64,000 nucleotides of DNA, from assembly GCF_014696675.1 (NCBI RefSeq), contig NZ_JACJQN010000012.1:124001-188000 (forward strand), given 5' to 3'. Below, piece after piece: positions 29,953 to 64,000 of the stretch; the first letter of the stretch is position 1; the number at the start of each line of letters is the position of its first letter. A model generated the notes under the pieces. The model ran no database searches and was not told the DNA's origin. It saw nothing but the letters and a program-made list of their open reading frames with translations. The position numbers and the translations under genes are program-made. Source of the DNA: Phormidium tenue FACHB-1052. Lineage in GTDB: Bacteria; Cyanobacteriota; Cyanobacteriia; Phormidesmidales; Phormidesmidaceae.

Positions 29953-31986
29953 CTACAGATTAATTTCTGGAGCAAAAAGGCTCTGTAATCGCAACAATTG
30001 ACCGCCACTTAAATAAAGCAAGTCGCCCTTACCCAGTAGGTTGACGGCTTCTCCCTGCTTACCGCCCAAGATAATCAAAGAATCTGCTTCGCTGGCTGTT
30101 TTCAGCGCTACCCGACCTGGCAGGTTGGAGCGAATCAGCGGAGTAACAACTTGGGCATCTGGGCGTTGGGTGGCGATGATTAAATGAATACCTGCGGCGC
30201 GGGCCATTGCGCCTAGCCGTTTAATACTTTGCTCAATGGCTGAGCGGCTTTCTTTCTCCGCCATGAAATCAGCGTATTCATCAAATATGCAAACAATGCG
30301 AGGCAACGGACTACTCGACTGCTGGTTGTAGCGAGTGAGGTCAGCACAGCGGTTTTTTTCAAAACGGCGGTAGCGCTGATCCATCTCGTTCATTAAAGAA
30401 TTCATCAGGGCGATCGCCCCTTCAGTATCTTTGACAATTGGCTGTAACAGCCAGGGAATATCTTCAAACTCGGGGAAGGTAACTCGCTTTGGATCTACCA
30501 GGGCAATCTGTAAATGCTTTGGAGGATGACGCTTGAGTAAGCTAAGCAAGAGCGATCGCAAAAATTCACTTTTGCCGCTACCAGTTGTACCGCCCACTAA
30601 AAAATGGCAGGTATTAGGATCAGATAGATCTGCTTCGACTAGATCACCCTCCAAATTAACACCAATGGCTATCCGTACCGGATCGGTCGGTGGCAAGGTC
30701 TGGATCTGAATATATTGCTTAAATAGAGCCGATTGCCGATCTGGACGAGGTAAATCGACGCTGACATAACCAGCCTGGGGAGCAATCATCGGCGAGGCCA
30801 TTAGACCCAGCTGCACGCGTAAATCGTCGGTTAGTCGCAGAATAGAATTGACTTTTACCCCTAGCTGAGGCTTTAGTTTCACCCGCAGAAAGGCTGGTGC
30901 TAGAGCAATCCCTTGTAAATCAACGCCGACGCCAAAAGACTCCAACGTACGAACAAGCTGGTTTGCAATTGCCTCCACTTCTGAGGAAGACGTGTTTTGG
31001 GGTGTCAAAGGCCGGTCTGTAGAGTTCGTTGTTTGGTTAGGTGCTGTAGATTGCTTGGTGCTCTCACTGGTCGTTGGTTTCTGACCTGCCAAGGCCATTG
31101 ATGTTGAAGCAGAGTTTGAGCTGAAATAGGTCTGGCACTTTTTGCGTTGAGGGCACATATCACACAGAGCCGCTTGTAGCGCTGCGGGCGGTGGCTCCCC
31201 CTGGTTTGGCTGCCAGGCGAGCCAATCGCGAATCTGTAGCAGCTTTTGGGGAATCAGCTGATGTACTGTGTTTTCTAGCTGTGCCCAGGAATAGACCTGC
31301 TCTTGCCAGTCAGGCAGCACGCTATAGACGGCAGAATCGATCGGAACACCAATCTTCTCCCGCAGCATGTAGCTGTAAAGAGCCACCTGGGCTAGCTGTG
31401 CTGACGGATCTGGAGACTGATAGGTCTTATACTCCACTACACAAAGACGGTGGTGGGTAAAGTCGTACACTAGGCTATCGAATCGCCCCTTCACTAACTG
31501 GTGACTGCCATCAGGCAGAGTGAATTCGTGTTTGACACTGAGTTCTTGGGCTAAAAAGGTTTTTTGCATCACCTCGTCAGCCTTGCAAAAGCGCCGATTG
31601 CTCACCAGCAGATCTGCCCAACGTTGAATTAGCCCTTTGAGGCCTTGCCAAAGTTGATGTAGAGCCTGAGCTTTTTCTGGCTTCTCGGCAATGGCCTGCT
31701 GTAGATAGGGAAAAAAGATGGACTGGTAGAGCCGTTGTTGAAACACTTGCGCGATCGCATCAGCCTTTAGCAATTCAGACTCAGCCATCAGCAGGAATTG
31801 AAATTCTGGCTCCGTACGCAGTTGGCGCACAAATTGGTCTGAGAGTTGGTGGAAGGCAGAACCAATACCCAATACTTTTTCAGCGGGAAGAAACATGGTC
31901 ATGCCGCCGGAGTGATGCCCCAGATAGAGCAACCGAGGGCATTCAAAGGCAAGGCGGACTTTACTAACGCTGAGGGAAGAAGTCAT
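29953..31986 (-). CDS. Cas4/AddB-like Fe-S nuclease domain fused to an FtsK-type DNA translocase
   Basis: 677 residues from the ATG at 31986, whose ATGA overlaps the stop of the preceding ATPase gene. Residues 1-285 look like a PD-(D/E)XK nuclease with an iron-sulfur site: Cys16 (AFECPRLLYL), Asp170 (GRFD), Glu185-Tyr-Lys187 (VVEYKTYQ), a Q..xY motif at 200-204, and Cys275, Cys278, Cys284 (CDMCPQRKKC). A Ser/Thr-rich linker (~290-335) follows. Residues ~370-677 match the FtsK/SpoIIIE motor: GVKVNSILRLTDDL, Walker A GGTTGSGKSE (465-473), Walker B IVCIFDEYADFM, and IIATQRPDAQVVTPLIRSNLPGRVAL. No membrane segments or gamma domain. Third gene of the operon. Probably cuts and pumps DNA; target unknown. 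Confidence 0.85.
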   Translation of the reverse strand: MTSSLSVSKVRLAFECPRLLYLGHHSGGMTMFLPAEKVLGIGSAFHQLSDQFVRQLRTEPEFQFLLMAESELLKADAIAQVFQQRLYQSIFFPYLQQAIAEKPEKAQALHQLWQGLKGLIQRWADLLVSNRRFCKADEVMQKTFLAQELSVKHEFTLPDGSHQLVKGRFDSLVYDFTHHRLCVVEYKTYQSPDPSAQLAQVALYSYMLREKIGVPIDSAVYSVLPDWQEQVYSWAQLENTVHQLIPQKLLQIRDWLAWQPNQGEPPPAALQAALCDMCPQRKKCQTYFSSNSASTSMALAGQKPTTSESTKQSTAPNQTTNSTDRPLTPQNTSSSEVEAIANQLVRTLESFGVGVDLQGIALAPAFLRVKLKPQLGVKVNSILRLTDDLRVQLGLMASPMIAPQAGYVSVDLPRPDRQSALFKQYIQIQTLPPTDPVRIAIGVNLEGDLVEADLSDPNTCHFLVGGTTGSGKSEFLRSLLLSLLKRHPPKHLQIALVDPKRVTFPEFEDIPWLLQPIVKDTEGAIALMNSLMNEMDQRYRRFEKNRCADLTRYNQQSSSPLPRIVCIFDEYADFMAEKESRSAIEQSIKRLGAMARAAGIHLIIATQRPDAQVVTPLIRSNLPGRVALKTASEADSLIILGGKQGEAVNLLGKGDLLYLSGGQLLRLQSLFAPEINL

Positions 31987-33992
31987 TGAGGCACATAGCA
32001 AATTAACTGCCCTTGACGACTGGCGTGGGGGTCTAAGACTTGCAGCCGATTTTTCTGACAGAGGGTTTGAATCACCTGGTCGATCTCCTGCTCGCCAAAA
32101 CTGGAGAACTGCTGTTGAGTATTCTCAATCAGCACCATCAACCCAACAAAGGATTGCGTGGCCATAAGGTTAATTATGTAGTCTGCCACAGCTTGAGTCT
32201 GGGATTCTTGGGTCTTACCTCCAGATATTTTGCCTGCAAACACAAGCTGTAAGTCCTGCAATAGGGGGCACTGTTCTAGCACTTTCGCCTCTCGTACCAG
32301 TGCCTGTAGGTCTTTGAGATGAGGCGTTTGGTCGCCTACGACTAGCTCCCCACCGCGAGCCGCACTGGCTAACTGATGATAGGTCTCTAAATACTGCACC
32401 GAGAGCAAATCAGGTTTGAAATGGGCATAGGAAGCTTTGCCGTTAAAAACCTGCTGATAGATTTGAGTGCCCTTTGCCCTTCCCTGACCTACGCTTCCGG
32501 CTCGGATCAGGTACAGGCGATCGCAGGCAGCCCGATCCACTACCCTTTGACACGCCTTCATCACATGAAAGAAGGTCATCATATTGGGGTCTTCATTCCA
32601 GACAATGCCTGTGAAGGCTCGTTTGTGCTGATGGGATAGGGAGTAGGAGGCAAACTTACCGGGTAAGAATTGAGTCGCGACCTGAGGTACCTCCAGTACT
32701 TCTAACACCTGCCCCAGCCGCCAAATCAGCTCAGGAGAGGTGAGCTGACTAATCCGAGTCACCCGCTGTTGTGCTGATTGAAACTCCTTATCCCAAATCA
32801 GCTTGAAGTTTGGTTTTGTCGGAGTTGGTTTTGGTTGTACTGGCGTTGGCTCACCCGGCTTAGGAATATCTGGTAGGCGGCCGTGCTGCTTGTAATGTGT
32901 AATTAGCTGTTGCCCCAGCTTAAGCGCATTGCGCGGCAACGTTCTATTACCCTGAAACGAATGCTCTAACCAATTACAAGATAGGGGAGCGATCGCATCT
33001 TTGGGTTTGGGTTTAACCTGAGCATGGAGGGGAGCCATACGCGTGGCCCAAAGCGCTGCGGCTTGATCTAAATTAATAGGTTTAAGTTGAAGAACTTGAT
33101 CAACTCGCGCCAAATCTGCCGGTTGAATGAATTTACGATTTTCCTGCCAAGTGCCCTTGACGAGGCTGATAAGCACTAAGAAGTTACGTAGCTTTTCGTT
33201 ATGAATGGTAGAGTTCAGGTTGAAAAGACTCTGCAAGTCGATTTTGCCGCTTTCTAGTTGAGGGATACTATCCAGATTGTCAAAACAGAGCACAATCGGC
33301 TGCGTAGAATTAGCAATGCGACCAATGTTATTCAACAGCTTTTGGGCAGCATCCTCAGAATCGATTGGCTTTTTGACCCGTAGGGCTTTAAAATCTTCCG
33401 CATCCAAATTGTCGCCCTTCAACCAGGCATAGGCCAAAGTTCGTAAATCAGGGTTAGTTGCCAAGTCGTAAAGTACACCAAAGAACTCTTTTCCGTTGTA
33501 GATACCTACTGGATAACTGGCCTGTAAGTTCTGGACAAAGCGTCCTCGCTCCCCGAGCACCCAATTAGTGAAACTCTGCTTTTGGAGGCTGGTTAGACCC
33601 TTAAGCCAGAGTAAAAGCTGCGACTCTGATGCTCCCTCTGGCACATGAATTAGGCTATCAATGGTATTGCGTAGCGTGTGCCGCCAGAGGTAGTCGCTAT
33701 CAGGCCAAGGCCCAATATAGGCAAAAAAAGCTTTGTTGTTGAGCTGACGCTTCAGTCGGCCTAGCAAGTAACTTTTACCTGCGCCAGAGTCTCCGGTGAG
33801 CAAGAGAGTACGGGTGGCATGGTCTTTGCCAATCTGGCTAATAGTTTGGTCAACCGCCGTTAGAACTGGGCCATGAATACCCTCGACTTCTAGAGCTATA
33901 TCGGGATTTTCTTGCCAAAAGTTACCGGGCCTAAATGTGTTGGGGTCAAACGGATTGAGATGATGCTGAATGAGTTGTTGAAGCGAAGTCAC
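31983..33992 (-). CDS. AAA-type ATPase of the nuclease-translocase operon
   Basis: 669 residues. A P-loop domain in residues ~40-330: Walker A LLLTGDSGAGKSYLL (Gly67-Ser74) and Walker B IVLCFDNLD (233-241), with Asn where a catalytic Glu is usual. An ORC/STAND-like arrangement is likely (ENRKFIQPADLARVDQVLQLKPI sensor region). A Pro/Lys-rich linker (~375-393, PKPGEPTPVQPKP) joins a C-terminal ~270-residue part that I cannot assign, ending in a winged-helix-like segment (SFGEQEIDQVIQTLCQKNRLQVLD). Starts 24 bp after the winged-helix gene stop and overlaps the nuclease-FtsK gene by 4 bp. Likely the loader or sensor of the module. Confidence 0.8.
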   Translation of the reverse strand: MTSLQQLIQHHLNPFDPNTFRPGNFWQENPDIALEVEGIHGPVLTAVDQTISQIGKDHATRTLLLTGDSGAGKSYLLGRLKRQLNNKAFFAYIGPWPDSDYLWRHTLRNTIDSLIHVPEGASESQLLLWLKGLTSLQKQSFTNWVLGERGRFVQNLQASYPVGIYNGKEFFGVLYDLATNPDLRTLAYAWLKGDNLDAEDFKALRVKKPIDSEDAAQKLLNNIGRIANSTQPIVLCFDNLDSIPQLESGKIDLQSLFNLNSTIHNEKLRNFLVLISLVKGTWQENRKFIQPADLARVDQVLQLKPINLDQAAALWATRMAPLHAQVKPKPKDAIAPLSCNWLEHSFQGNRTLPRNALKLGQQLITHYKQHGRLPDIPKPGEPTPVQPKPTPTKPNFKLIWDKEFQSAQQRVTRISQLTSPELIWRLGQVLEVLEVPQVATQFLPGKFASYSLSHQHKRAFTGIVWNEDPNMMTFFHVMKACQRVVDRAACDRLYLIRAGSVGQGRAKGTQIYQQVFNGKASYAHFKPDLLSVQYLETYHQLASAARGGELVVGDQTPHLKDLQALVREAKVLEQCPLLQDLQLVFAGKISGGKTQESQTQAVADYIINLMATQSFVGLMVLIENTQQQFSSFGEQEIDQVIQTLCQKNRLQVLDPHASRQGQLICYVPQ

Positions 33993-34016
33993 TGGCTTTT
34001 ACCGTCCCTACACATT

Positions 34017-34880
34017 TCACTTGGTCACACTGATGTAAAACAAAGCCCCGCCAATGTTCTGAGGAATCCCCGCAGCAACTTCAGTCTCGCTATAGTTGGA
34101 AACATCTTGCAGGGTGCTGAGCTCAATCAAATCCTGGCTCTGTAGGTCATATAGCAACCGATCTAAGGCTTCCCGGCTGTGAGAGGTTTGTAGCTTCTCT
34201 CGGAGATGAAAAATGGGTAAAAAGTTGTCAGCATCCAATTGCTGATCGAGCTGGCGAATAGCATCCAAAACTGCATCTGGTGTCAGGCTAGAATCTTTAT
34301 TGGATGCTGATTTCGTATTGGGCAACTCCTGGAAAGTAGCGACTGCTGCTCCCTTCTGTCCCAAGAACTGGCGTAGAAAGGTGAGGTAGTCACCCAATAT
34401 TGAGAATGTTAGGTTGGCCTCACCACTAGGTATACAGTCACTCAACAAATACTGAATGCCTTTAGGAGTTAGCCACACATCTTTAATTTGGCTCTTGCTA
34501 ACGGTAATTAGCCCTCGCTCTTTAAGCTGATTGAGCAATTGTTGGCGATCGCCTGCTGGAACTTTGTTAGCCGTACTTGGTATAACAGCTTTGGTTGTCG
34601 CCACTTTTAGTAGCGCTAACTCATTGGGGCCAACGAGTATGGGCAGCGTACTAGCATCCGACTTTAATAACGTTTTACCAGCGGCCGTTGTCTGATATCG
34701 ATAAATTTCTTCGATATACTCTACAAAGCCCTTACTACAAAGGCTGATACAGGCTTTGTTGCGCTCTGGTGTCGGGTTTTTACTTTTGCCTAGTTTAATC
34801 TGGCTGATCGGAGTGCGGTAATCAGGAGAATATTTCAACAACCGCAACAAAAACTTTAGCTCTGACGATTTCAACTCCAT
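34017..34880 (-). CDS. multi-winged-helix DNA-binding protein, first gene of the island operon
   Basis: 287 residues from the ATG at 34880; a TTG at 34946 is a weaker start. Three winged-helix-like segments are visible: ~20-75 (NKACISLCSKGFVEYIEEIYRYQTTAAGKTLL), ~105-150 (QQLLNQLKERGLITVSKSQIKDVWLTPKGIQYLL) and ~220-285 (HLREKLQTSHSREALDRLLYDLQSQDLIELSTL). No enzymatic motif. I do not recognise the full protein. As the promoter-proximal gene, it may recognise DNA for the ATPase/translocase or regulate the operon. Base composition is visibly AT-richer than that of surrounding core genes. Confidence 0.7.
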   Translation of the reverse strand: MELKSSELKFLLRLLKYSPDYRTPISQIKLGKSKNPTPERNKACISLCSKGFVEYIEEIYRYQTTAAGKTLLKSDASTLPILVGPNELALLKVATTKAVIPSTANKVPAGDRQQLLNQLKERGLITVSKSQIKDVWLTPKGIQYLLSDCIPSGEANLTFSILGDYLTFLRQFLGQKGAAVATFQELPNTKSASNKDSSLTPDAVLDAIRQLDQQLDADNFLPIFHLREKLQTSHSREALDRLLYDLQSQDLIELSTLQDVSNYSETEVAAGIPQNIGGALFYISVTK

Positions 34881-35261
34881 AGGAATAGTATTTAATAAAC
34901 GTAACAATAAGTAACTTAGATGTAGCTTTGAAGCATGGTTTGTCAAGAGAGATCCCTGGTTAAGGGTTCTTATGTCTCTAGCTTAATGATGGTTCCCATC
35001 TCCCAAGACGCTCTTCACAAAAGCTACAAGATTGCGGCATCAAAGATACCTGCCCCCTTCGCTAGCCTTCAGCACCACGAATTCAGCAGCAATCCAAGCA
35101 ATGTTCTAAAGCTGTTCCGCAACCGTTTTCGCCAAACACATCTACAGAGGACGGGTGCCTTTGCCCTTTAGCCAATATCTCAGTCAAGCCTCAGGCACCA
35201 TCCCCTGGCCAGACATCCTCTACATCAAGATTCAAACGCCTCTACATCAGGAGGCCCCGTC
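34881..35261. other. spacer between island operon and the PIN toxin gene
   Basis: No gene recognised. Only short shadow frames. The promoter of the minus-strand three-gene operon should lie at its left end, in an AT-rich stretch near 34885-34950. Confidence 0.4.
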
Positions 35262-52446: not shown

Positions 52447-54134
52447 GTCATGCCTCCCTGGGAAATGGTGAAGTAGAAGGTTGATCCTTGGTTCAACTCA
52501 GCCTCCACCCAAATTTTACCGCCGTGCCGCTCCACGATTTTTTTGCACACCGCCAGCCCAATGCCCGTGCCTGGATAGTGAGTGCGGTTATTGAGCCGTT
52601 GAAAGATGACAAAGATCTGGTCAGCGTACTGGGGGTCGAGGCCAATGCCATTATCCTGGACGGAAAACAGCCAGGCATCTTCCATTTGGCTGACCGCAAT
52701 CGCAATGCGAACGGGAGCCTCACCGCGAAACTTAATCCCATTGCCGATCAGATTTTGGAATAGCTGGATTAGCTGGGTGGGGTCAGCCTGGAGCTGGGGT
52801 AAGTCTGGGTAGGTGACGACGGCTCCACTTTCGTCGATCGCGAGCTTGAGATTGGCGATCGCCTGCTCAACGGCAGCAGTGCAGCTAGTGAGTTCAAAGG
52901 CGTGCCCCCGAGTGCCAATACGCGAATAGGTCAGCAGGTCGTTGATCAGGGTGCGCATCCGCAGGGCCCCATCGACGGCAAACTGAATAAAGTCGTCGGC
53001 GTCGGCGTCAAGCTGGCCTTTGTAGCGGCGCTCCAGCAGTTGTAGGTAGCTGGTGACCATGCGCAGCGGCTCTTGCAGATCGTGGGAGGCAATGTAGGCA
53101 AACTGCTGGAGTTCAGCGTTGGAGCGGGCTAGCTCTTGGCGCTGGAGGGTCTCCTGTTCTAGGAGCTGGGCCTGGGTGAGGGCGATCGCAATTTGGTCGG
53201 CAAGCTGCTGGAGCAACTCGGTTTCAAAAACCGTCCACTGTCGGGGGCCAGCACATTGGTGAGCAATCAGCAGGCCCCACAGGTCGCCCTGGGCGAGAAT
53301 AGGCACCACCAGCTTGGCCTGCACCGCCAACTGCCGCAAAAAATCGACCAGGCAGGGCGCGACGTGATCTTGGGCCACATCGACTAAGCTGCGGATCCGC
53401 CCCCGGCGGTACAGTTCCTTAGATTCGATCGGGAACACCTCTTGGGGAAACACCATGCCGAGAACCTGGGGAAAACCGGGCTGCACCGCCTCAGCCACGC
53501 CGCTGCCGGTGCCATCGGGCCAGAGGCGATAGATCAGCACTCGGTCGGCCTGGAGAATGGTTTTAACCTCGGTGACCGCCGTTTGCAGAATGTCGTCGAT
53601 CTGCAAGGACTGGCGAATCTTGAGGGTGACATCGGCGAATAGGTGCGATCGCTGATTTTGGCGCTGCAGGGCGGCCTCGGCCTCGGTGCGCTCCTGCACT
53701 TCGCGCTCTAGCTGCATGTTTTGGGCTTGCAGCAGTTGAGTCAGGCTCTGGAGGCGCAGGTGGGTCTTCACCCGGGCCAGCACCTCTTCGTACTGTAACG
53801 GTTTGGTGATGAAATCCACTGCCCCCAGGGCCAAACCTTTTACCTTGTCCGTGGTTTCCGTCAGGGCAGTCAGAAAGATGACCGGAATGGCGGCGGTGGT
53901 TTCCTGCTGCTTTAGGCGACGACAGGTTTCAAAGCCATCCATACCCGGCATCAAAATGTCGAGCAAAATTAAGTCTGGATCGGCGTACTGGGCCTTTTCC
54001 AGGGCGCTTTCGCCATCCTCAGCAAACAGGACTTTGAACCCGGCATTGTTCAAAAAATCGAACAGCACATCTAGGTTGGTCGGGGTGTCATCCACTACAA
54101 GAATGGTGGCGGTTTTGGCGGTGTCCTCGCTCAT
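52443..54134 (-). CDS. hybrid REC-GAF sensor histidine kinase
   Basis: 563 residues. Receiver ([19 protein letters not shown]...[17 protein letters not shown]), a coiled coil ([26 protein letters not shown]), a GAF domain (~170-320, with [18 protein letters not shown] typical of phytochrome-like GAFs, though no chromophore Cys was identified), HisKA with [14 protein letters not shown] (His), and HATPase (N-box [43 protein letters not shown]). Overlaps both neighbours by 4 bp. Confidence 0.9.
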
Positions 54135-57100
54135 GCCGGTGGTTGGTAGCGTTTAATCAGGTCGATGGCCTGTCTTCCCTTATAGCTTAGGGCTAACTGC
54201 TTGAGCTGAGTGGTAAACGGAGCCCACTGCTGCTGCTGCTGTTCAATGCGCTCGGCATAGGCCACGACGCCTTTGAGATCTCCCATCAGAGCGAGGTTGA
54301 GCAGGGTGTCGAGTTCAGACTCGGGGGGAATAGCGGTGGGGGAGAGGGGGGAAGAGGGGAACTGGGTTAGAGCAGCGGGCAGGGTGGGGGGTAGGGGGTG
54401 GGGGGTGGGGTCGTATAACCATTCCAGACCCAGGTGGAGCTGGAGCTTTGCCAGCAGGGCCGGTTCATGGATGGGCTTGGGCAGAAAATCGTCGCAGCAG
54501 GCTAGCTGGCTCTGGCGATAGTCAAATTCCATCACGCTGGCGGAAATGGCGATCACAACAACGGATTGCAACGCCGGAATTTGTTTTAACCGACGGGTCA
54601 TTTCAAACCCATCGATCAGCGGCATCACCAGGTCGACCAGTACGACATCGGGCTGGTGCTGCACCGCCTGGGCCAGCCCCTCCTGGCCATTGGCCGCCTC
54701 CAGCAGATGAAAGCCGAGGGGGGCCAAAAAGTCGATGATCACGGCTCGGTTATAGTCCTTGTCGTCTACCACCAAGACGGTGCGGCGATCGCCCCCATAG
54801 CCGACGATCACCTGCCCGGTGGTCAGGCTGGTCGTCTCGCCCGGCTGAGAGGCCGCCAGGTCGAGATCGAACCAGAACCGGCTGCCCTGACCCAGGTCGC
54901 TGCTGACGCAGATGTCGCTGTCCATCAGCTGCACCAGCTGACGACTAATCGCTAGCCCCAACCCTGTGCCGTCGGTGTGTCGCCCCGACTCGGGCGTGCG
55001 GTGAAACGGGTCGAAGATCTGCGCCAATTGTTCAGGGGCAATGCCCATGCCCGTATCGACAATTTCAAAGCGAATCAGGTTAGCGGTAGAGGGCGCGGCA
55101 TGGGCTGCTTCCTGGCGATCGGCCTCCACATCTCCTCCCCTATCGCCCTTGGGGAACCAAGCCTGGAGAGGGCCGACCTTAAGCGAGACCTGCCCCGCCT
55201 CAGTAAACTTGACGGCGTTGCCCAATAAGTTCAGCAGCACCTGCTGAAGCCGCTTTTCATCGGCATAGACGTACTCGGGCAAGGGCGCGATCGCCTCGTA
55301 GGTCAACAAAATCTGCTTCTGGTTGGCGCGAACCCGGCAGATTTCTACCAGGTTTTCGAGAAAACGGGGCAGGTGAAAAGTCTCCGGGTGCAATTCCATT
55401 CTGCGCGCTTCGATTTTCGACAGATCGAGCACATCGTTGATCAGCGTCAGCAGGTACTCACCGCAGCGATGAATGACATCGATGCCCTGCCGCTGCGGCT
55501 CGGTGAGGGTCTGGTGCTTTTTGAGCACCTGGCTATAGCCCAAAATACCGTTCAGGGGGGTGCGCAGCTCATGGCTCATGTTGGCGAGAAACTCACTCTT
55601 GGCTCTGTTAGCGACCATGGCTGCCGCTTCGGCCCGCTGCCGCTCCTGAATCTCCTGCTGCAACAGGACGTTCTTGTCCCGCAGTTCTAGGGTGCGATCG
55701 CCCACCTTAGCTTCCAAGGTGCGGTTGGCCTCCTCCAGATCGGCGTAGAGGCGGGCATTTTCAATCGAAATGGCGGCTTGGGCCGCCAGCAGCTGCAAGA
55801 CCTCCAGCCGATCTGGAGTGAAGGCACCGGGGGTGAGGTTGTTCTCCAGGTACAGCAGCCCCGTCAGCTTCCCCTGGTGCAGAAGCGGGGCACAGAGAAC
55901 GGATTTGGGTTGCTGAGCCAGGATGTAGGGATCGGTGGCAAACAGGTCTTCGGCGGTGGCATCGCTGAGCACCAGGGCGGTCTGGGTTCTGGCGACATAG
56001 TTGACCACCGACAGCGGTAGGGGTAACGGAGCGCTACTGTCTCGATCGCTCCCGAGTCCGGCCTCACCCTGCTGCACGGCCACCCGGTCATCATCCCCCG
56101 TTCCCGAAACGTCACCCGAGACTTGGCCCGAGGCGGCGATCGCCAACTGTCCATCAGTATCCAGCAGTAAAGCTCCTTGCTCCGCCCCGGCATTTTCCAG
56201 GACAATCTGCATCAGTTTGGTGAGCAGATCGCTCAGCACGATTTCCCCGGACAGGGCTTGGGAGGCCTTGATGACGGTGGCAAGATCAAAGCCTTTGAGC
56301 CCGCTCGTAGATACCGAACTGCTGGTAAGCGAGGCGGTCGTCGGGCCGGGCTCTTGCCTGGATGTTTGGGTGCCCAGGGCGGGATGCTGGGCCTTGAGCG
56401 CCTGAGCCTTGGCGATCGCACCCCAGCGCAGGTAGCCGTAGTAGGCCTCGGCCCGGTAGACCTGGGCCACTTTGTCGCGGCCCTGAGCCTGGTAAAATTC
56501 GGCAGCTCGCTCGTTGGCGATCGCCTCCTCTTGCACATAGCCCTGCTCTCGGGCACCGGCGATGGCGCGATCGTAGTGCTCCATCGCCAGCCAGGGCTGA
56601 CCCAGCAGGCGGGCCTGCTCCGCCTCCACCAGATCCAGCTTGTGCTGAAAATTCATCGGCGCATACTGGGCCGATCGCCGCAGGGCCGCCTGGTTCTGCT
56701 CAACGCGGCTGAGCACGCTGTCGAGCGGCAGTTCTCCCGCCGCGACCAGAGCTAGCCTAGCCAGCGAATCGTAGAACTGGAACACCGGCACGACTAAAAA
56801 TCCCTTCACCCCATCTAGATACTGTTCAGCCAGGCCCGCGTCCTCTAGAGCCTGGTCATAGTAACCAAACAGGTAGCTGAGGATGAGTTTGTTGAGGTAG
56901 AAGTAGTGCAGGCCGGTGCGATCGTTACCGGCCTTGAGCAGGGGCAGGGCTACCGCCTCCTGGTAAGCATCGCCCTGAAGGTGGCTCGGGTGCTCCGGCG
57001 AGTCCATCAAATTCAGCACCGATTGCTGCACAATTTGGTTCCAGCCCAGGGCGTTGTCCTGCTTGAGCTGGGCCAGGGTGGTGCTAATCGTCGCCATCTC

Positions 57101-60100
57101 AGCCGCAAGTTTGGGCAGTTCTTGACCCATCAAGTAGGCATGGTGGCAGCGCTGAATCGCCGCATAGCCGCCATATTCTAGCTGGCCGTTTTCGAGACCG
57201 CTTTGGTAACCCTCCCACAGCAGCGTCAGGGTTTCGCGCACGTGGATCTTGCCGTGCAGGGTGCAGGCCCCACCGATAAAGCTAACGCTGGCTTTTAGAT
57301 CCACCGCGTTAAACTTTTCGACCACCTGGAGGGCGAGCTGGCCAAACCGATAGGCCGCTTCACTGTCTTGCAAAATGCCGTTGAGAATCACCCCGTAGCA
57401 CACGTAGCTGTAGGCGGCAAAGGGCGAATTACCATAGCGCAGGGAGAGATTGATCTGCTCGCAGATCACCAGCGGAAACAGCATCGGTGCGGCCTGATAA
57501 CAGGGCGAGCCCAGGCTCGTAAGCATGCGAATGGTGGCGAGTTTCTCGGCGTCGCTAATGGGAGGGAGGTTGAGCAGGTCAGCGGTGCTTTTGCCCTCCA
57601 GATGACCTGCGGTTTGGGCCAGCACCCGCTGAATGTCGTCTAGGGTGGGCGATGCCGTCAGGCTCACCCCCAGCCGTTCCAGCGCCTGCAACCCCAGGTG
57701 TACCGCTTCTAGCTGTTTTACCTGGGCCATACAGGCCTGAATTTTGACCTCGTAGACGGTCATGGTGTCCAGGGGCGATCGCCCCTGACGCAACACGATC
57801 GCCGCCCAGGCCTCCATCTGGTCAAAGCCACCGTTCAGGTAGGCCGCCTCAACGGCGGCATTGTGCAGGGCCAGGGTGAGGTCATACTGCTGCTGCCAAC
57901 TGGTGTCTGGTAACAGCTCCAGGCCCAAGCTCAGGTAGCGCAGGGCCGAGTCGTAGGCGGCAGCGGCTTTGGCCTTTTGGCCCGCCACCCGGTTGATCTC
58001 AGCGATTTGGTAGGCTTCGGCCTCCGAGGCCAGCAAACCGACGCCGTAGTTGAGCTGATTGGCGATCGCAAAAATGTTGTCATTGCGCTCTGCCGCCGGA
58101 ATATTTTGCAGCAGCAGTTGACCAATTTTGAGATGGGTTGACTGCCGTTGCGCCTCTGGAATTAACGAGTAAGCGGCCTGCTGCACCCGGTCGTGCAGAA
58201 ACCGGTAGACAATCTGAGCGATGGTTTTTTCTGCCGCTTGCTCAGCCAACCCTTCATCAGGAGTTTTGTCTAAATCCAGCACCAGGGGAATTTTGTAGGC
58301 CTGGGTGAGGGGCATCACAAATTCCGCTTGTAGGGCTTCCCACAGATCGACAGCCGTTTCTGTTTGAGAGGCTTCGTTCACGATCGCCAGCATATCCAGG
58401 GAAAATTTATCCCCAATGCAGGCCGCCAACTTTAACACCTGCTGGGTCTTGGCAGAGAGTTTCTGGATCTGATTCACCATCAGTTCCACCACGTTCTCCG
58501 TTATGTCAACGCTCTGCAACACCGCTTCATCCCAGCACCACTGGCCCTGGTCAAAATCGAACCAAAGCAGCCCGTCCTGGTGCAGCGATTTCAAAATCTG
58601 GGTGACAAAGAAGGGGTTGCCCTGGGTTTTCTTAAAGATCAGCTGGGCCAGAGATTGGGCTTGAGCTGCGTCAGTGTGGAGCGTATCGGCCACCAGCTGA
58701 TTGACCTCGGGCTGCTCCAGCGGTTGCAGCACAAGATTGCGCACCGTGGCCCCAGCGGCTTGCATCTGCTCCAGGGTGTGCATTAAGGGGTGGGCTAAGC
58801 TCACCTCGTTGTCGCGGTAGGCACCCAGCAGCAGCAAATACTGGCTCTCCGGATTCGTCACCAGCAGCTCGATCAGCTTTAGGGAAGGCAGGTCGGCCCA
58901 CTGCAAGTCATCCAAAAAAATGACCAGTGGATGCTCCGGCTGGCTAAACACCCCAATGAACTGCTGGAAAACCCGATTAAACCGATTTTGCGCTTCCGAG
59001 GCCCCCAGTTGGGGCACCGCCGGCTGAGGCCCGATGATCCGCTCAACCTCCGGAATCACCTCCACCACGATCTGGCCATTCGCACCCAGCGCCGCCAGCA
59101 GCTTGGCTTTCCACTGGGCGACCCGGTCGTCACTTTCGGTCAGCAACTGCCGCATCAGTTCTTGAAAGGCCTGGGTCAGCGATGCGTAGGGGCTATTGCG
59201 CTTGAACTGGTCAAACTTACCGGCAATAAAATATCCCCGCTGCCGAGCAATGGGCTTATGAACTTCCTGCACCAGAGAGGTTTTGCCAATCCCCGAATAT
59301 CCGCTCACCAGCATCAGTTCCGCCGCTCCGGCACTGACTTGCTCAAACGCGGCCAGCAGGGTGGACACTTCGTTTTCCCGACCGTAGAGAGTTTGGGGAG
59401 TAAGAAACTGGCTAAAACAGTCGAGTTGACCAATGGGGAAAGGGGCGATGGTGCCCGACTCCCGCAGTTGTTGCTGACAGCGCACCAAGTCGGCCTTTAG
59501 CCCCAGCGCACTCTGGTAGCGGTCTTCTGCTGTTTTCTCCAGCAGTTTCATCACCAGATCGGCCAGAGCGGTGGGCAGTTCGGGACGGAGTTGGTCGGGG
59601 GCAGCGGGGGTTTTGGCGATGTGGCAATGCACCAGCTCCAGCGGGTCACTGGTCGGAAAGGGCAGCTGCCCAGTCAGCATTTCGTAGAAGGTCACCCCCA
59701 GGGAGTAAAAATCGGCGCGATAGTCGATCGTCCGATTCATGCGCCCGGTTTGTTCCGGCGAGAGATAGGCTAAGGTTCCTTCGAGCAGTGTGGGACGGCT
59801 CGCGGTTGGGTTTTCTCGAGACAGGCGCGAGGCAATGTCAAAGTCAATCAGTTTGACCTGTCCACTGGCCGGGTGAATCAGGATGTTGCGAGGGTTGATG
59901 TCTTTGTGAACAATCTGGCTCTGGTGTAGTGTCGCCAGCGCAGCGGTGAGCTGGAGGGCAATGGCAAGAAATTCATTGCTGCTCAGCAGACGTTGCTCTA
60001 GGTAGTCGCTTAACGCAATGCCGCCAAAGTCTTCTAGCACCAGCGCGAGCCCATTTTGGTAGGGCTCTAGCGCCAGCGCCTTGATAATCTCTGGGCTATC

Positions 60101-60283
60101 TAAGCCATCGAGGATGCTGAACTCGTGCTTAAGACGCGTGATCTCTTCCAGCGAGGGATAGTCTGCCTTGAGCAGCTTGACCACCACCGGCTGCTCGCCC
60201 GACTGGGTCACCCCAGCATAGACCCGGGTGCGCGCTCCCTCATGGATGGCCCGTTGGAGGGTATAGCCTGCAATATCCTGCAA
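54131..60283 (-). CDS. giant Ser/Thr kinase - ATPase - GAF - histidine kinase - receiver hybrid
   Basis: 2050 residues from a TTG start at 60283. Domains in order: protein kinase (~1-270) with Lys36, HKDINPRN (126-133), DFD (147-149) where DFG is usual, and SPEQ; AAA/STAND ATPase with P-loop [10 protein letters not shown] (327-336); a long alpha-solenoid of ~700 residues; GAF (~1310-1480); HisKA with [16 protein letters not shown]; HATPase with [13 protein letters not shown] and [13 protein letters not shown]; and a C-terminal receiver with [14 protein letters not shown] and [15 protein letters not shown]. First gene of a four-gene operon with ATGA couplings. Integrates Ser/Thr and His phosphorylation. 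Stimulus unknown. Confidence 0.93.
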
Positions 60284-60786: not shown

Positions 60787-61035
60787 CTACAGCGTCAGGT
60801 TTCCAGAGGATTGAGGCGGGGCGATCGCACCACCAGAACTAGGGCCATCGGATAAAGCGCCATCCTCTGCTGGAATTTCGCTTAAGACTTCCTCAAGCAC
60901 CTGAATGGCTCCACCAATGCGGAGCAGCGTTTGCTGTAGCTCGGCTCGCTTGGTATCTAATTCTACTAGCATTTTTTGCCCTGTCTCAAATTCAGTTTTG
61001 AGGGCTTGAAGGCGCTGTTGAAGTTTATCTTTCAT
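60787..61035 (-). CDS. small coiled-coil protein of the tail-fibre locus
   Basis: 82 residues from the ATG at 61035. The N-terminal half is a coiled coil (LQQRLQALKTEFETGQKMLVELDTKRAELQQTLLRIGGAIQVLEEVL) and the C-terminus is Ser/Gly/Pro-rich (DGPSSGGAIAPPQSSG). Its start overlaps the fibre gene's stop by 11 bp, so it is translationally coupled and may be a fibre chaperone or tail-assembly factor. Not recognised. Confidence 0.6.
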   Translation of the reverse strand: MKDKLQQRLQALKTEFETGQKMLVELDTKRAELQQTLLRIGGAIQVLEEVLSEIPAEDGALSDGPSSGGAIAPPQSSGNLTL

Positions 61036-63514
61036 GGGAGTTTTTCCTGGAAGGTTGGTGGGCACTGCCCACTTTGCGGATTTGAGAGGTGCTAATTTTG
61101 GATTTGAGTTGGTGAACTTCTGCTTGTAGATTTGTCAGAATCTTATACATTTCTTGGGTTGCAGAAACATGAAGCATGGACAGCGCTTCGTAGTCTACTA
61201 CATGAAAATCATCAACCTCTCGGCCATAGACAAAGATTTTTCCAAAATGGCTGACTGGCACTTTAAAGCTATCTAAAGTTACAGCTTCTACCGTACAGAT
61301 GACCGATTCTCTCTCCTCCCAGAGTAGTTTGACTCGCTCACCAACCTGCAGACCATGCTTAGATAGGCTAACCCAGGATTCCTTTATAAAAGCAATTTGA
61401 AATATGTCGGGGACGACATCAGCAAGCTTATTAACGGCCTGAGGATAAACGTCAAAAACTTGCTGACCAATGATTTTCTTTGCAAATTTTTCATTGAAAG
61501 CAATTTTATCTTTATAACTATAATCAACCACTTTCAATTTAAGTAGAGTTTGTAAATCAGTCCTAGCATTGCTAGGTCTTATATTGTCTTTTATCCTTAC
61601 ATCTGAAAAAGCGTAAAATCCAGAAGCTGCAATTCCATCGCTAGCGTAAAGCGAGTACTGGGTAAGTTCTGGCCTAACTCTATATGGATTCCCACCTTGG
61701 TGATGATAGTTAGCTCCTTTGTCAATTGTGTAGAATACCTCTCCCCTAATTTCAACCAGCCCTTTATTAGGTGTATTAGTTCCAATACCAACCCTGCCAT
61801 CACTTCTAAGAGTCATTACCGTATTGTGAGTATTGAAGCTACCATCGGTAAGATTAATATCTAATTGAGTTTGCGAGTCAGAACTTGTTCCTGTCAAATA
61901 TCTGCCCAAGGCAAAGGAGGCTTTATTAGCATAAGACTCACCACTAACTCCCTCCCTAACTAAGTGTAAGATATCTCGTGTGTCCCTTCTTGTATTGCCA
62001 CCGTTGTGAACGGCTTCAAAAAGAGTCAGAGGGCAGGCTCCAAAACTAAAAGAACCAACATTTTGAGCAACTGAATTAATAGAAACATTGCCTTGTCCAT
62101 TAACAACTAGCCCACCTGTATTACTAGCAGAACCTCTAAGATAAACTTGGCTATTGACTGTAAGATCACCTGCTAACCTACTTGTTCCTGTAGCCAGCAG
62201 TGGGCCATTAAAGGTAGCACTACTGCGGGTAGATAATGGGCCTTCTAGAATTGTCGATCCATATACCCAAAGCGTATTACCATAGCCCGTCATCTGAATC
62301 GAGTTATTAACTATTAAATTTCCATTAAAAGTACTGGAGCCAGTGACAGTTAGCAAGCCACCTACTGAAGCATTTCCAGTTGCTAATGTACTAACAGATG
62401 TATTCGTGGCAGCTAGGGTACCAACAGAAGTGTTTCCAGCAGTTAGGGTACCGCCGATAGCAGCATTACCACCCACTTGTAGAGCGCTTGTGATTCCAGT
62501 TAAAGAAACCGAATTATTGACGGTTACACTTTCCCTAAAGATACTGGTACCTTTAACTAGTAATGTACCGTCTAGGGTCGTATCGCCATCAACAGTTAGG
62601 TTGTTATCTCCTGGGTCAGAATCGCCGCCAACATGTACGCCACCATTGATGGCTAGGGCTGCGCTAGGGGTCATAGTGCCAATGCCGGTTTTGCCGTCAC
62701 TTTGTACTGTTAGCCGCCAAGCACCTCCAGCATAAAACCCAACTTTATTGGCACCATGACCGCCAATAAACCTATTTGATGTTACCCAAAGGCCGCCGTT
62801 TTCGTTGTCAGATTTTAGGCATCCGTTAACTGTAAGATCGGCCTCAACACCGTCTTGACCAACCATGCTTAGGCCACCGTTGAGAATGGCTAGGGGTAAA
62901 TTCCCACTGTTACTAGATCTCAAGGTTAGTGCTGTTACAGCACCAGGAGTGGGCAGGCGCAGGCCGGCATATTGGCGGACGCTAAAATCAAGGTTGGTGC
63001 TAATGTTTTGGTTGGTTACGGTGAATTTGGCCAGAGCAATAGCGGCGTAGCGCTCATGGTTAGGATTAAGAACCTGCTGGTTGAAGTCACTTAATGTAGT
63101 TTTGGCTAACTCAATGCGAGGCATTTCGCTAGTGCGTGTCTCGGTGCCTTTGTCGCCTTGAGGAGCAGTGGCTTCTTCTCGATACTGAATAAAGAGTATC
63201 CAGTCGCCCTGGGGGGTAGGAGGCACTGTAATTTGCGTGACAGGACTATCGCTGAGCAACACGATCGATCTGCCTTCAATGTCAAAGGCAGTGCCCGCCG
63301 AAACACTAAACCGGACATCTGCGATGGAGGTCTTCCCCTGATTGATGGCCGAGGCTTCTTTCCAATTCAAACCTTCAGCAATGCCTGAAATATGGAGCAG
63401 GCGATGGTGTCGCTGCTGGCGATCGCGGTGGTAAGCCTGCTCATCGCTGAAGTCGGTGTCTTCTAGATATTGCCCCTCAAAATAGCGGGGGCGTTGAGTC
63501 GGGTCGTAAGCCAT
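61025..63514 (-). CDS. tail-fibre-like protein with C-terminal S74 intramolecular chaperone
   Basis: 829 residues. The N-terminal ~170 residues (RPRYFEGQYLEDTDFSDEQAYHRDRQQRHHRLLH) resemble an attachment domain seen in contractile-injection and tail loci. The middle (~200-620) is a repetitive, Thr/Ser/Gly/Asn-rich beta region with LTV.G...G, typical of a trimeric fibre. At ~665 the FSDVRIKDNIRPS motif marks a peptidase S74 chaperone, whose Ser-Asp dyad self-cleaves after trimerisation; the rest (IIGQQVFDVYPQAV...) fits this domain. Lower GC than neighbours. Likely a receptor-binding fibre; target unknown. Confidence 0.8.
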   Translation of the reverse strand: MAYDPTQRPRYFEGQYLEDTDFSDEQAYHRDRQQRHHRLLHISGIAEGLNWKEASAINQGKTSIADVRFSVSAGTAFDIEGRSIVLLSDSPVTQITVPPTPQGDWILFIQYREEATAPQGDKGTETRTSEMPRIELAKTTLSDFNQQVLNPNHERYAAIALAKFTVTNQNISTNLDFSVRQYAGLRLPTPGAVTALTLRSSNSGNLPLAILNGGLSMVGQDGVEADLTVNGCLKSDNENGGLWVTSNRFIGGHGANKVGFYAGGAWRLTVQSDGKTGIGTMTPSAALAINGGVHVGGDSDPGDNNLTVDGDTTLDGTLLVKGTSIFRESVTVNNSVSLTGITSALQVGGNAAIGGTLTAGNTSVGTLAATNTSVSTLATGNASVGGLLTVTGSSTFNGNLIVNNSIQMTGYGNTLWVYGSTILEGPLSTRSSATFNGPLLATGTSRLAGDLTVNSQVYLRGSASNTGGLVVNGQGNVSINSVAQNVGSFSFGACPLTLFEAVHNGGNTRRDTRDILHLVREGVSGESYANKASFALGRYLTGTSSDSQTQLDINLTDGSFNTHNTVMTLRSDGRVGIGTNTPNKGLVEIRGEVFYTIDKGANYHHQGGNPYRVRPELTQYSLYASDGIAASGFYAFSDVRIKDNIRPSNARTDLQTLLKLKVVDYSYKDKIAFNEKFAKKIIGQQVFDVYPQAVNKLADVVPDIFQIAFIKESWVSLSKHGLQVGERVKLLWEERESVICTVEAVTLDSFKVPVSHFGKIFVYGREVDDFHVVDYEALSMLHVSATQEMYKILTNLQAEVHQLKSKISTSQIRKVGSAHQPSRKNSHER

Positions 63515-63560
63515 GGTGATGTTCTGGAGAGGGGGGGAAACTGGGTGAATAAACTGGGGT

Positions 63561-64000
63561 TTAGGGGTTGGCGTTCAGGCTGGGTTCATCGGTGCCCAAG
63601 AAGGTATTGCCAGTGTCATTGAGTCTCCCTCCCTGAGGATCTTTCTCTGGAAATTGCAGGCCAGGAGCCAGGGTAAAGGACTGGGGGGTAGCTACGGTGC
63701 CGTTGGGATAGGTGACTGTCAGGGTGCCTTGAATGCGATCGCGGCTGAGGTTGACGAGGCCCACCTCCCAATTCAGCCCCGATTCGCTGACCGTCGCCGC
63801 TGCACCTAAGGGGCCTGAACCTCGCTGTTGCGCCATGACCCGCTGCCCCTGGCGTAGCTTCAGCGATAGCCGAGTCGCCCTAGCCGCACGAGGTGATGCG
63901 TCACCTCGACTGACTTGAAGGTTATCTACCCGAGCGGCGAGCGTCCCCGTTCCGGCTACAGCACCCAGAGCGTACACCTGCCCAGGAATTTGCATGGTGC
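63561..64000 (-). CDS. C-terminal part of an exported/tail-locus beta-rich protein (partial)
   Basis: The frame runs open through the right edge, so the 5' end may be missing; an ATG lies at 63995. Visible ~144 residues contain a beta-rich, Gly/Ala/Asn-rich sequence: GQVYALGAVAGTGTLAARVDNLQVSRG looks like the end of a jelly-roll or LamG-like domain, followed by a second beta domain (VSESGLNWEVGLVNLSRDRIQGTLTVTYPNGTVA). Ends with an acidic, Pro-rich tail. Located 46 bp upstream of the fibre gene on the same strand, so one operon. Not recognised. Confidence 0.45.
   Translation of the reverse strand, partial: TMQIPGQVYALGAVAGTGTLAARVDNLQVSRGDASPRAARATRLSLKLRQGQRVMAQQRGSGPLGAAATVSESGLNWEVGLVNLSRDRIQGTLTVTYPNGTVATPQSFTLAPGLQFPEKDPQGGRLNDTGNTFLGTDEPSLNANP

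What the first reader, a model, noticed from the sequence alone, without database searches (positions are those of the whole stretch)
61025..64000. Edge of a contractile-injection or phage-tail-like locus
An S74-chaperoned fibre with an RPRYFEGQYLEDTDF-type N-terminus, a coupled coiled-coil protein and a further beta-rich protein form one operon at the right end. In cyanobacteria such fibres occur in thylakoid-linked or extracellular injection systems as well as prophages. The base composition seems lower in GC than neighbours.
Basis: partly seen in the sequence, partly recalled or inferred. Interest (0 to 1): 0.55.

Follow-up and report, generated by a model that had tools for sequence, protein, structure and literature searches.

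The report
Cyanobacterial injection machine with swapped fibre
The right end of this cyanobacterial window is the tail-fibre end of a near-complete contractile injection system (a phage-tail-like molecular syringe), whose fibre tip looks acquired from elsewhere and is followed by a small helical partner protein shared by fibre genes in bacteria and archaea.

Summary
The window is contig C4:124001-188000 of a cyanobacterial genome. Upstream of the fibre, beyond the window edge, lies a near-complete contractile injection system (CIS) on the same strand: sheaths, tubes, LysM, hub, spike, PAAR, gp25, two baseplate-J proteins, Tail_P2_I, cap, AAA+ ATPase and a DUF4157 protein with a nuclease domain. 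The "further beta-rich protein" is only the C-terminus of Tail_P2_I, cut by the window edge.

It does not look like the Anabaena thylakoid type. Sheath and wedge proteins are closest to Streptomyces coelicolor CIS, which lacks fibres. Here the wedge protein is duplicated and there is a fibre with a TssK/receptor-binding-like anchor. The distal fibre (GC 39-43%) ends in a predicted self-cleaving S74 chaperone found in 2 of 386 sampled genomes, while the anchor occurs in 15, so the tip looks swapped in.

The small coiled-coil protein belongs to a family unnamed in Pfam, PHROGs and NCBIfam, found in many phyla including archaea, usually just after a fibre gene (60 of 80 loci; control 11 of 329 ORFs). 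Best guess: fibre-assembly chaperone or fixed fibre partner, untested. Verdict: new variant of a known kind.

The parts
61025..63514 (-). CIS tail fibre, 829 aa
   Evidence: NCBIfam CIS13_fam partial match residues 7-118, 57.8 bits, below its cut-off of 370
62870..63514 (-). Fibre N-terminal baseplate-anchor domain (aa 1-215), TssK / phage RBP / Anabaena Cis19-like fold
61607..62899 (-). Fibre shaft (aa 206-636), low GC from about aa 331 onward
61025..61606 (-). S74 intramolecular chaperone (aa 637-829) starting at SDVRIK (Ser637/Lys642), with an inserted segment about aa 702-760; GC 39%
60787..61035 (-). Small coiled-coil protein (about 82 aa) coupled to the fibre; one 52-residue helix plus disordered tail
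63561..64000 (-). C-terminal part of the 378-aa Tail_P2_I (Cis12-like) baseplate wedge protein; the gene continues to 64697 outside the window

Best explanation
This is the 3' (fibre) end of one contractile injection system locus of about 24 kb in a cyanobacterium. SHOWN by sequence: a near-complete CIS gene set in one orientation, ending ...baseplate-J (1109 aa), second baseplate-J-like (429 aa), Tail_P2_I (378 aa), fibre (829 aa), coiled-coil protein (about 82 aa). INFERRED mechanism: a sheath-tube syringe assembles on a baseplate whose wedges pair the two baseplate-J proteins with one Tail_P2_I protein, where S. coelicolor uses two copies of one Cis11 plus Cis12. The TssK-like N-terminus of the fibre docks on Tail_P2_I. 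The fibre chain trimerises with help from its C-terminal S74 domain, which then cuts itself off just before Ser637, leaving a mature fibre of about 636 residues that binds a target. The small helical protein most likely acts on the fibre as an assembly chaperone (in the manner of T4 gp57A) or a fixed coiled-coil partner. The DUF4157 plus nuclease protein is the likely cargo. The distal fibre was probably acquired by recombination onto a resident anchor.
For: Gene set. Conserved order in relatives. Sheath nearest S. coelicolor 8bky (319 bits) versus Anabaena tCIS 143 bits; both baseplate-J proteins and Tail_P2_I nearest S. coelicolor 9gtp, whose wedge is two Cis11 plus one Cis12 (PMC12237407 passages). 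31 of 36 loci having this fibre anchor and Tail_P2_I (within 80 fetched loci) carry both baseplate-J forms. Anchor fold: Foldseek TssK 5y0e E 1e-4, Anabaena 7b5h E 8e-4; VIA-align Z 8.8 phi812 baseplate and phage 1358 RBP, 8.0 TssK, 7.8 7b5h. Module swap: anchor in 15 of 386 genomes, S74 module in 2 of the same 386; same module, 54% identical, on a different anchor type in viral-collection contig L133; GC break inside the gene. Coiled-coil protein: 52-residue helix pLDDT 95-98, heptad core positions hydrophobic in 309 of 364 cells versus 99 of 934 elsewhere, fibre-like ORF within 1.5 kb upstream in 60 of 80 loci versus 11 of 329 control ORFs; of 386 genomes, 15 have it, 15 have the anchor, 13 have both.
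Against: Nothing shows expression, assembly, release or target. The contig ends about 1 kb upstream of the effector gene, so the upstream boundary is unseen. The S74 Pfam score is close to its cut-off, and the related G338 S74 scores below it (17.5 versus 22). The S74 segment of own versus G338 (53-56% identity) is no more alike than several core genes (43-73%), so that pair alone does not prove recent transfer. Anchor Z-scores near 8 are in the range where a merely common arrangement is possible (note). The coiled-coil protein has no detected sequence relation to a phage chaperone, and 20 of 80 loci showed none of my fibre signs upstream; some of these are cut by contig ends or look fibre-like by eye, others (e.g. 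L067, L118, L119) have no fibre next to it.
Confidence: 0.75

Rival explanations
1. Thylakoid-anchored CIS (tCIS) of the Anabaena type: the fibre-like proteins hold the particle in the thylakoid membrane and it acts on stress or cell death.
For: Host is a cyanobacterium; the fibre anchor shares its fold with an Anabaena tCIS baseplate chain of 7b5h, the crown protein by the literature; mode of action is hard to predict from sequence (PMC12998442 passages).
Against: No membrane-spanning stretch in fibre, Tail_P2_I or baseplate-J proteins by a simple hydropathy scan (best 19-residue means 1.06-1.34), whereas Anabaena Cis13 has one (PMC8894136 passages). Sheath and wedge proteins are much nearer S. 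coelicolor. Loci with the tCIS crown type are reported to lack Tail_P2_I (PMC12923769 passages); this one has it.
Confidence: 0.1
2. Cytoplasmic, self-directed CIS as in Streptomyces, acting in the producer's own death programme.
For: Closest structural relatives by sheath and wedge are S. coelicolor proteins.
Against: Streptomyces CIS lacks tail fibres and has a membrane protein, CisA, at this gene position (PMC12237407 passages); here that position holds a long S74 fibre and no membrane protein was seen.
Confidence: 0.15
3. Remnant of a contractile prophage or an R-type tailocin.
For: Fibre matches PHROG tail-fibre families; S74 fibres are common in phages (general knowledge).
Against: AAA+ ATPase, Pvc16_N cap and eCIS_core effector candidate present; no capsid, portal, terminase or lysis family among the 22 sequences scanned in Pfam; similar gene order in cyanobacteria, Chloroflexi, a myxobacterium and archaea.
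Confidence: 0.03
4. The small coiled-coil protein is not a fibre chaperone but a structural piece of the particle (for example a clamp between fibre and baseplate), or it merely sits last in the operon.
For: Very high conservation of one stretch (LLRISGAIQVLEE) and an invariant glycine in the core suggest a fixed binding partner; in several loci another gene lies between fibre and this gene.
Against: It follows fibres of different anchor and tip types, which points to a general fibre function rather than one baseplate contact; no DNA-binding family found.
Confidence: 0.45

Closest known systems
Streptomyces coelicolor CIS (subtype IId; PDB 9GTP, 8BKY)
   Same: Nearest solved sheath, baseplate-J and Tail_P2_I relatives; Tail_P2_I-type baseplate.
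   Different: Streptomyces has no tail fibre and one Cis11 used twice per wedge; here two baseplate-J paralogues, two sheath genes, and a fibre with a coiled-coil partner.
eCIS with eBAP3-type fibres (PMC12923769)
   Same: About 200-residue shoulder-like anchor resembling TssK and the tCIS crown, downstream of Tail_P2_I; S74 reported among eBAP3 partners.
   Different: That survey, as read in passages, places eBAP2/eBAP4 in cyanobacteria and eBAP3 mainly in Bacillota and Actinobacteriota, and says eBAP3/5 loci largely lack Afp12; here a second baseplate-J-like gene accompanies Tail_P2_I. The eBAP3 profile itself was not available to test.
Anabaena thylakoid-anchored CIS (PDB 7B5H)
   Same: Cyanobacterial host; fibre anchor fold similar; DUF4157 effector candidates.
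   Different: Different baseplate type and sheath lineage; no membrane segment found here.
T6SS baseplate TssF-TssG-TssK
   Same: Fibre anchor fold like TssK; Tail_P2_I is compared with TssG in the literature.
   Different: The protein continues into a long S74 fibre; no T6SS membrane-complex family appeared among the proteins scanned.
T4 gp57A fibre chaperone
   Same: Small (79 aa), no cysteine or proline, serves several trimeric fibres (PMC3004832 passages); here 67-90 aa with no cysteine or proline in the core.
   Different: No sequence similarity found in phage records or PHROGs; chaperone activity here is only a hypothesis; the present family has a conserved aromatic (25 of 26 cores).

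Membership tests
Extracellular contractile injection system (eCIS) | Sheath, tube, gp25, hub/spike, LysM tube initiator, baseplate-J genes together | tested here: met
Extracellular contractile injection system (eCIS) | AAA+ ATPase (Afp15-like) and cap protein Pvc16 | tested here: met
   AAA 113 bits, Pvc16_N 97 bits
Extracellular contractile injection system (eCIS) | DUF4157 (eCIS_core) associated cargo candidate | tested here: met
   PF13699 100 bits plus Endonuclea_NS_2 27.5 bits (cut-off 27)
Extracellular contractile injection system (eCIS) | Tail fibre downstream of the baseplate genes | tested here: met
Extracellular contractile injection system (eCIS) | Release from the producing cell and action on a target cell | not testable with these tools
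   needs microscopy and culture work
Subtype IId (Streptomyces-like) CIS | Sheath closest to Streptomyces sheath among solved structures | tested here: met
   no tree was built
Subtype IId (Streptomyces-like) CIS | Absence of tail fibre (Streptomyces cytoplasmic form) | tested here: not met
Thylakoid-anchored CIS | Membrane-spanning segment in a fibre or baseplate component | tested here: not met
   simple hydropathy scan only
Thylakoid-anchored CIS | Cis19 crown protein | tested here: inconclusive
   anchor fold similar to a 7b5h chain (VIA Z 7.8) but no sequence match to 7b5h at E 0.1
eBAP3 fibre | Match to the published eBAP3 profile | not tested
   profile not available; only indirect signs
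eBAP3 fibre | Tail_P2_I adaptor present and no second Afp11/12-type gene | tested here: inconclusive
   Tail_P2_I present, but a second baseplate-J-like gene is present; whether it is an Afp12 homologue was not tested
Peptidase_S74 self-cleaving fibre chaperone | S74 domain with Ser and Lys at the cleavage site | tested here: met
   (25.4 bits, cut-off 22); SDVRIK aligned to the S74 region of 7dc3; role of the residues recalled, cleavage itself not testable
Prophage | Capsid, portal or terminase genes | tested here: not met
   none among 22 sequences of the window end and the 26 kb extension in Pfam; contig ends upstream
T4 gp57A-type chaperone | Sequence relationship | tested here: not met
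   (sequence searches only; no direct comparison with gp57A)
T4 gp57A-type chaperone | Needed for fibre trimer formation | not testable with these tools
   needs co-expression

The most novel reading that the evidence does not exclude
The coiled-coil protein is a general, separately encoded tail-fibre cofactor (assembly chaperone or locking helix) shared by contractile injection systems of bacteria and archaea and some phage-like loci, kept constant while fibre anchors and tips are exchanged; and this lineage uses a split, two-paralogue version of the Streptomyces-type wedge together with target-binding fibres.
Probability: 0.4. Interest if true: 0.65.

Novelty: new variant of a known kind. 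Interest (0 to 1): 0.5.

Why it matters
Cyanobacterial CISs are mostly discussed as thylakoid-anchored. This locus shows a second, fibre-bearing lineage in cyanobacteria that is related to the fibre-less Streptomyces machine, so one can ask directly what gaining or losing a fibre does to the mode of action. The small helical protein is a compact, testable candidate for an undescribed assembly factor of CIS fibres, which would matter for understanding how such particles are built.

Tried and rejected
Rejected: that the 144-aa beta-rich ORF is a separate protein (it is the end of Tail_P2_I). Rejected: prophage (no head or packaging family). Disfavoured: tCIS (see rivals). Tried without result: PDB sequence search with the 121-aa and the 464-aa proteins of the locus (nothing); PDB profile search with the coiled-coil family gave only designed or generic coiled coils; tblastn of one coiled-coil protein against phage records: no match; S74 tip against phage records: one short weak match; promoter and terminator scan of the window end: no more than chance; no tRNA in the window. 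Literature: searches, with passages read in PMC8894136, PMC12923769, PMC12998442, PMC13277306, PMC8213781, PMC3004832, PMC12237407, PMC10066040, PMC10598620 and PMC12210884, found no mention of this coiled-coil family; the word 'coiled' does not occur in the main text of PMC8213781, PMC12923769, PMC10598620 or PMC12210884. Chen et al. 2019 was not held, so an earlier mention there cannot be excluded; supplements were not readable.
Full report
Place. The window is G000:C4:124001-188000 of a 5.8 Mb genome. I extended the contig to its end.

What the fibre operon belongs to. All CIS genes are on the minus strand and read towards the window. In order of transcription they are: a 785-aa eCIS_core (DUF4157) protein with an Endonuclea_NS_2 domain; AAA+ ATPase; Pvc16_N cap; two sheath proteins (598 and 430 aa); gp19 tube; a 121-aa protein; second gp19 tube; a 464-aa proline-rich protein; CIS_tube plus LysM; GPD hub; Phage_base_V spike; PAAR/DUF4280-like protein (both Pfam scores below cut-off); gp25; baseplate-J 1109 aa; baseplate-J-like 429 aa; Tail_P2_I 378 aa; fibre 829 aa; coiled-coil about 82 aa. 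The 429-aa protein is below the Pfam cut-off for Baseplate_J (17.4 versus 21.1) but matches the NCBIfam baseplate-assembly model at 132 bits, below its cut-off of 155.8, and matches the S. coelicolor Cis11 chain at both ends (residues 1-74 and 173-305). A CIS with a DUF6519 fibre on contig C2 is a second, different system in the same genome.

Lineage. By sequence against solved structures the sheath is nearest S. coelicolor 8bky (319 bits), then 8bl4 and 9ezm, with Anabaena tCIS at 143 and AlgoCIS at 136 bits. Tail_P2_I and both baseplate-J proteins are nearest S. coelicolor 9gtp. The hub does not discriminate: a VgrG of 9rce, S. coelicolor 9gtr and Anabaena tie at 73-75 bits. PMC12237407 (passages) describes the S. 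coelicolor wedge as two Cis11 and one Cis12 and reports no tail fibres. I infer that the two paralogues here take the two Cis11 positions. No tree was built.

Relatives. The fibre anchor (first 205 aa) occurs in 15 of 386 sampled genomes of the phylum, own included. I fetched 15 neighbourhoods from the other 14 genomes. Two (L044, L045) are CISs of another subtype with weak anchor matches, L033 holds two fibres next to a DUF4157 protein at a contig end, and the other 12 share parts of this gene order and all carry a coiled-coil homologue. Among 80 loci fetched with the coiled-coil family, 36 have this anchor type with Tail_P2_I and 31 of these have both baseplate-J forms; of the five others, at least L124 is cut by its contig end. 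The 31 include cyanobacteria, Chloroflexi, Minicystis, Ruminiclostridium, Azospirillum and archaea. So this baseplate combination is not private to this genome.

Fibre. AlphaFold2 on 27 aligned anchors gave pLDDT 75.8, pTM 0.75. Foldseek's best matches are TssK and chains of the Anabaena baseplate 7b5h (E 1e-4 to 1e-3); VIA-align gives Z 8.8 for the phi812 baseplate and phage 1358 receptor-binding protein, 8.0 for TssK, 7.8 for 7b5h and 7.3 for the major tropism determinant. These agree in kind (baseplate-attached trimeric fibre anchors), though single Z values near 8 can arise from a common arrangement. The C-terminus is Peptidase_S74 from residue 637. Its SDVRIK aligns with the S74 region of myelin regulatory factor in 7dc3; that Ser and Lys are the catalytic pair is recalled. 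Only 2 of 49 anchor-type fibre ORFs in the 80 loci carry an SDx[RK]xK motif.

Evidence that the tip was swapped. (a) GC falls from 52% (aa 1-205) to 39-43% (aa 331-829) within the gene, while the other structural genes have 50-61%. The effector gene is also low (43-46%), so low GC in this locus marks the genes expected to vary. (b) The S74 tip is in 2 of the same 386 genomes against 15 for the anchor. (c) The tip is 54% identical to that of a fibre with a different N-terminus on contig L133 of the viral collection. Against: between own and G338 the tip (53-56%) is no more alike than core genes (43-73%), and the shafts hardly align, so timing and direction are unknown.

The coiled-coil protein. 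No Pfam, PHROG or NCBIfam family matched above cut-off (the best Pfam, ANG-1 at E 0.0024, is below its cut-off). A scan of one genome per species found 245 loci encoding relatives; the best 80 were kept, from cyanobacteria, Chloroflexi, Myxococcota, Proteobacteria, Acidobacteria, Planctomycetota, Bacillota and archaea. Twenty-six aligned members share the core LLRISGAIQVLEE at a mean column identity of 50%. The model is one 52-residue helix (pLDDT 95-98) with a poorly predicted tail. Fourteen successive heptad core positions are hydrophobic in 309 of 364 cells against 99 of 934 elsewhere; an invariant glycine and a mostly polar residue interrupt the core; no proline, cysteine or tryptophan occurs in the 26 cores. 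A fibre-like ORF by any of six sequence signs ends within 1.5 kb upstream in 60 of 80 loci; the same signs mark 11 of 329 control ORFs further than 3 kb away. The signs were chosen after seeing some upstream genes, so this contrast is somewhat favourable. Nearest neighbour only, 52 of 80 carry a sign, 24 do not and 4 have no ORF in range; in several of the 24 a 141-144 aa ORF, the length of the spike-tip protein found in L036, lies between. Some loci (e.g. L067, L118, L119) show no obvious fibre next to it. In the 386 genomes the family is in 15, the anchor in 15, both in 13 (Fisher p 2e-20, which ignores shared ancestry); the sheath family is in 71, of which 14 have the coiled-coil protein. 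G312, with the protein but no sheath hit over the limit, is a decayed locus with a sheath fragment. So in this phylum it tracks one fibre lineage, not CISs in general. Five viral-collection contigs also carry it; two (L126, L127) are this same CIS type, and in L128 it follows a long fibre-like gene in a phage-like context.

Mechanism proposed. Baseplate wedges of two baseplate-J paralogues and Tail_P2_I; TssK-like fibre anchors on Tail_P2_I; trimeric fibre folded with its S74 domain, which is then shed; the small helix assists or locks fibre assembly; firing delivers the nuclease-bearing DUF4157 protein. The gene set is shown; all interactions, cleavage, cargo status and target are inferred.

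What is known and what differs. S74 in eCIS and modular fibres are in print (PMC8213781 and PMC12923769, passages). What I did not find in print in the searches listed is the coiled-coil family and the pairing of duplicated baseplate-J with Tail_P2_I and a fibre in cyanobacteria. Chen et al. 2019 could not be read. Hence: new variant of a known kind.

Noticed in passing
G000:C2 about 36.8-67 kb (L012/L013): A second, different CIS in the same genome, with a DUF6519 (eBAP5-type) fibre with beta-helix and two eCIS_core proteins, one with a peptidoglycan-binding domain.
   Followed up: partly
window 29953-34946 (-): Low-GC (0.44-0.50) three-gene block: PD-(D/E)XK plus FtsK/HerA fusion protein (PADLOC SspH and Mad8 models), an AAA_16 ATPase and a possible winged-helix protein; candidate defence module.
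   Followed up: partly
window 54131-60283 (-): 2050-aa protein joining Ser/Thr kinase, AAA_16, GAF, histidine kinase and receiver domains, the next minus-strand gene downstream of the CIS operon.
   Followed up: no
L003:2632-4989 (-): eCIS_core protein with an Endonuclea_NS_2 domain just over its cut-off, low GC (43-46%); likely cargo of this CIS.
   Followed up: partly
L003:5061-5585 (-): 174-aa ORF near the contig end whose start recalls a serine recombinase; no PADLOC or Pfam family.
   Followed up: no
L034, L036, L040, L042 between fibre and coiled-coil genes: A 142-aa ORF sits between fibre and coiled-coil gene; the one in L036 is a CIS_spike_tip protein (PF19267), while the own locus has a PAAR-like gene near the spike instead.
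   Followed up: partly
L135 (G312:C1:954000-972000): Decayed CIS remnant: sheath fragment, probable transposase ORFs by eye, and an intact coiled-coil gene.
   Followed up: partly
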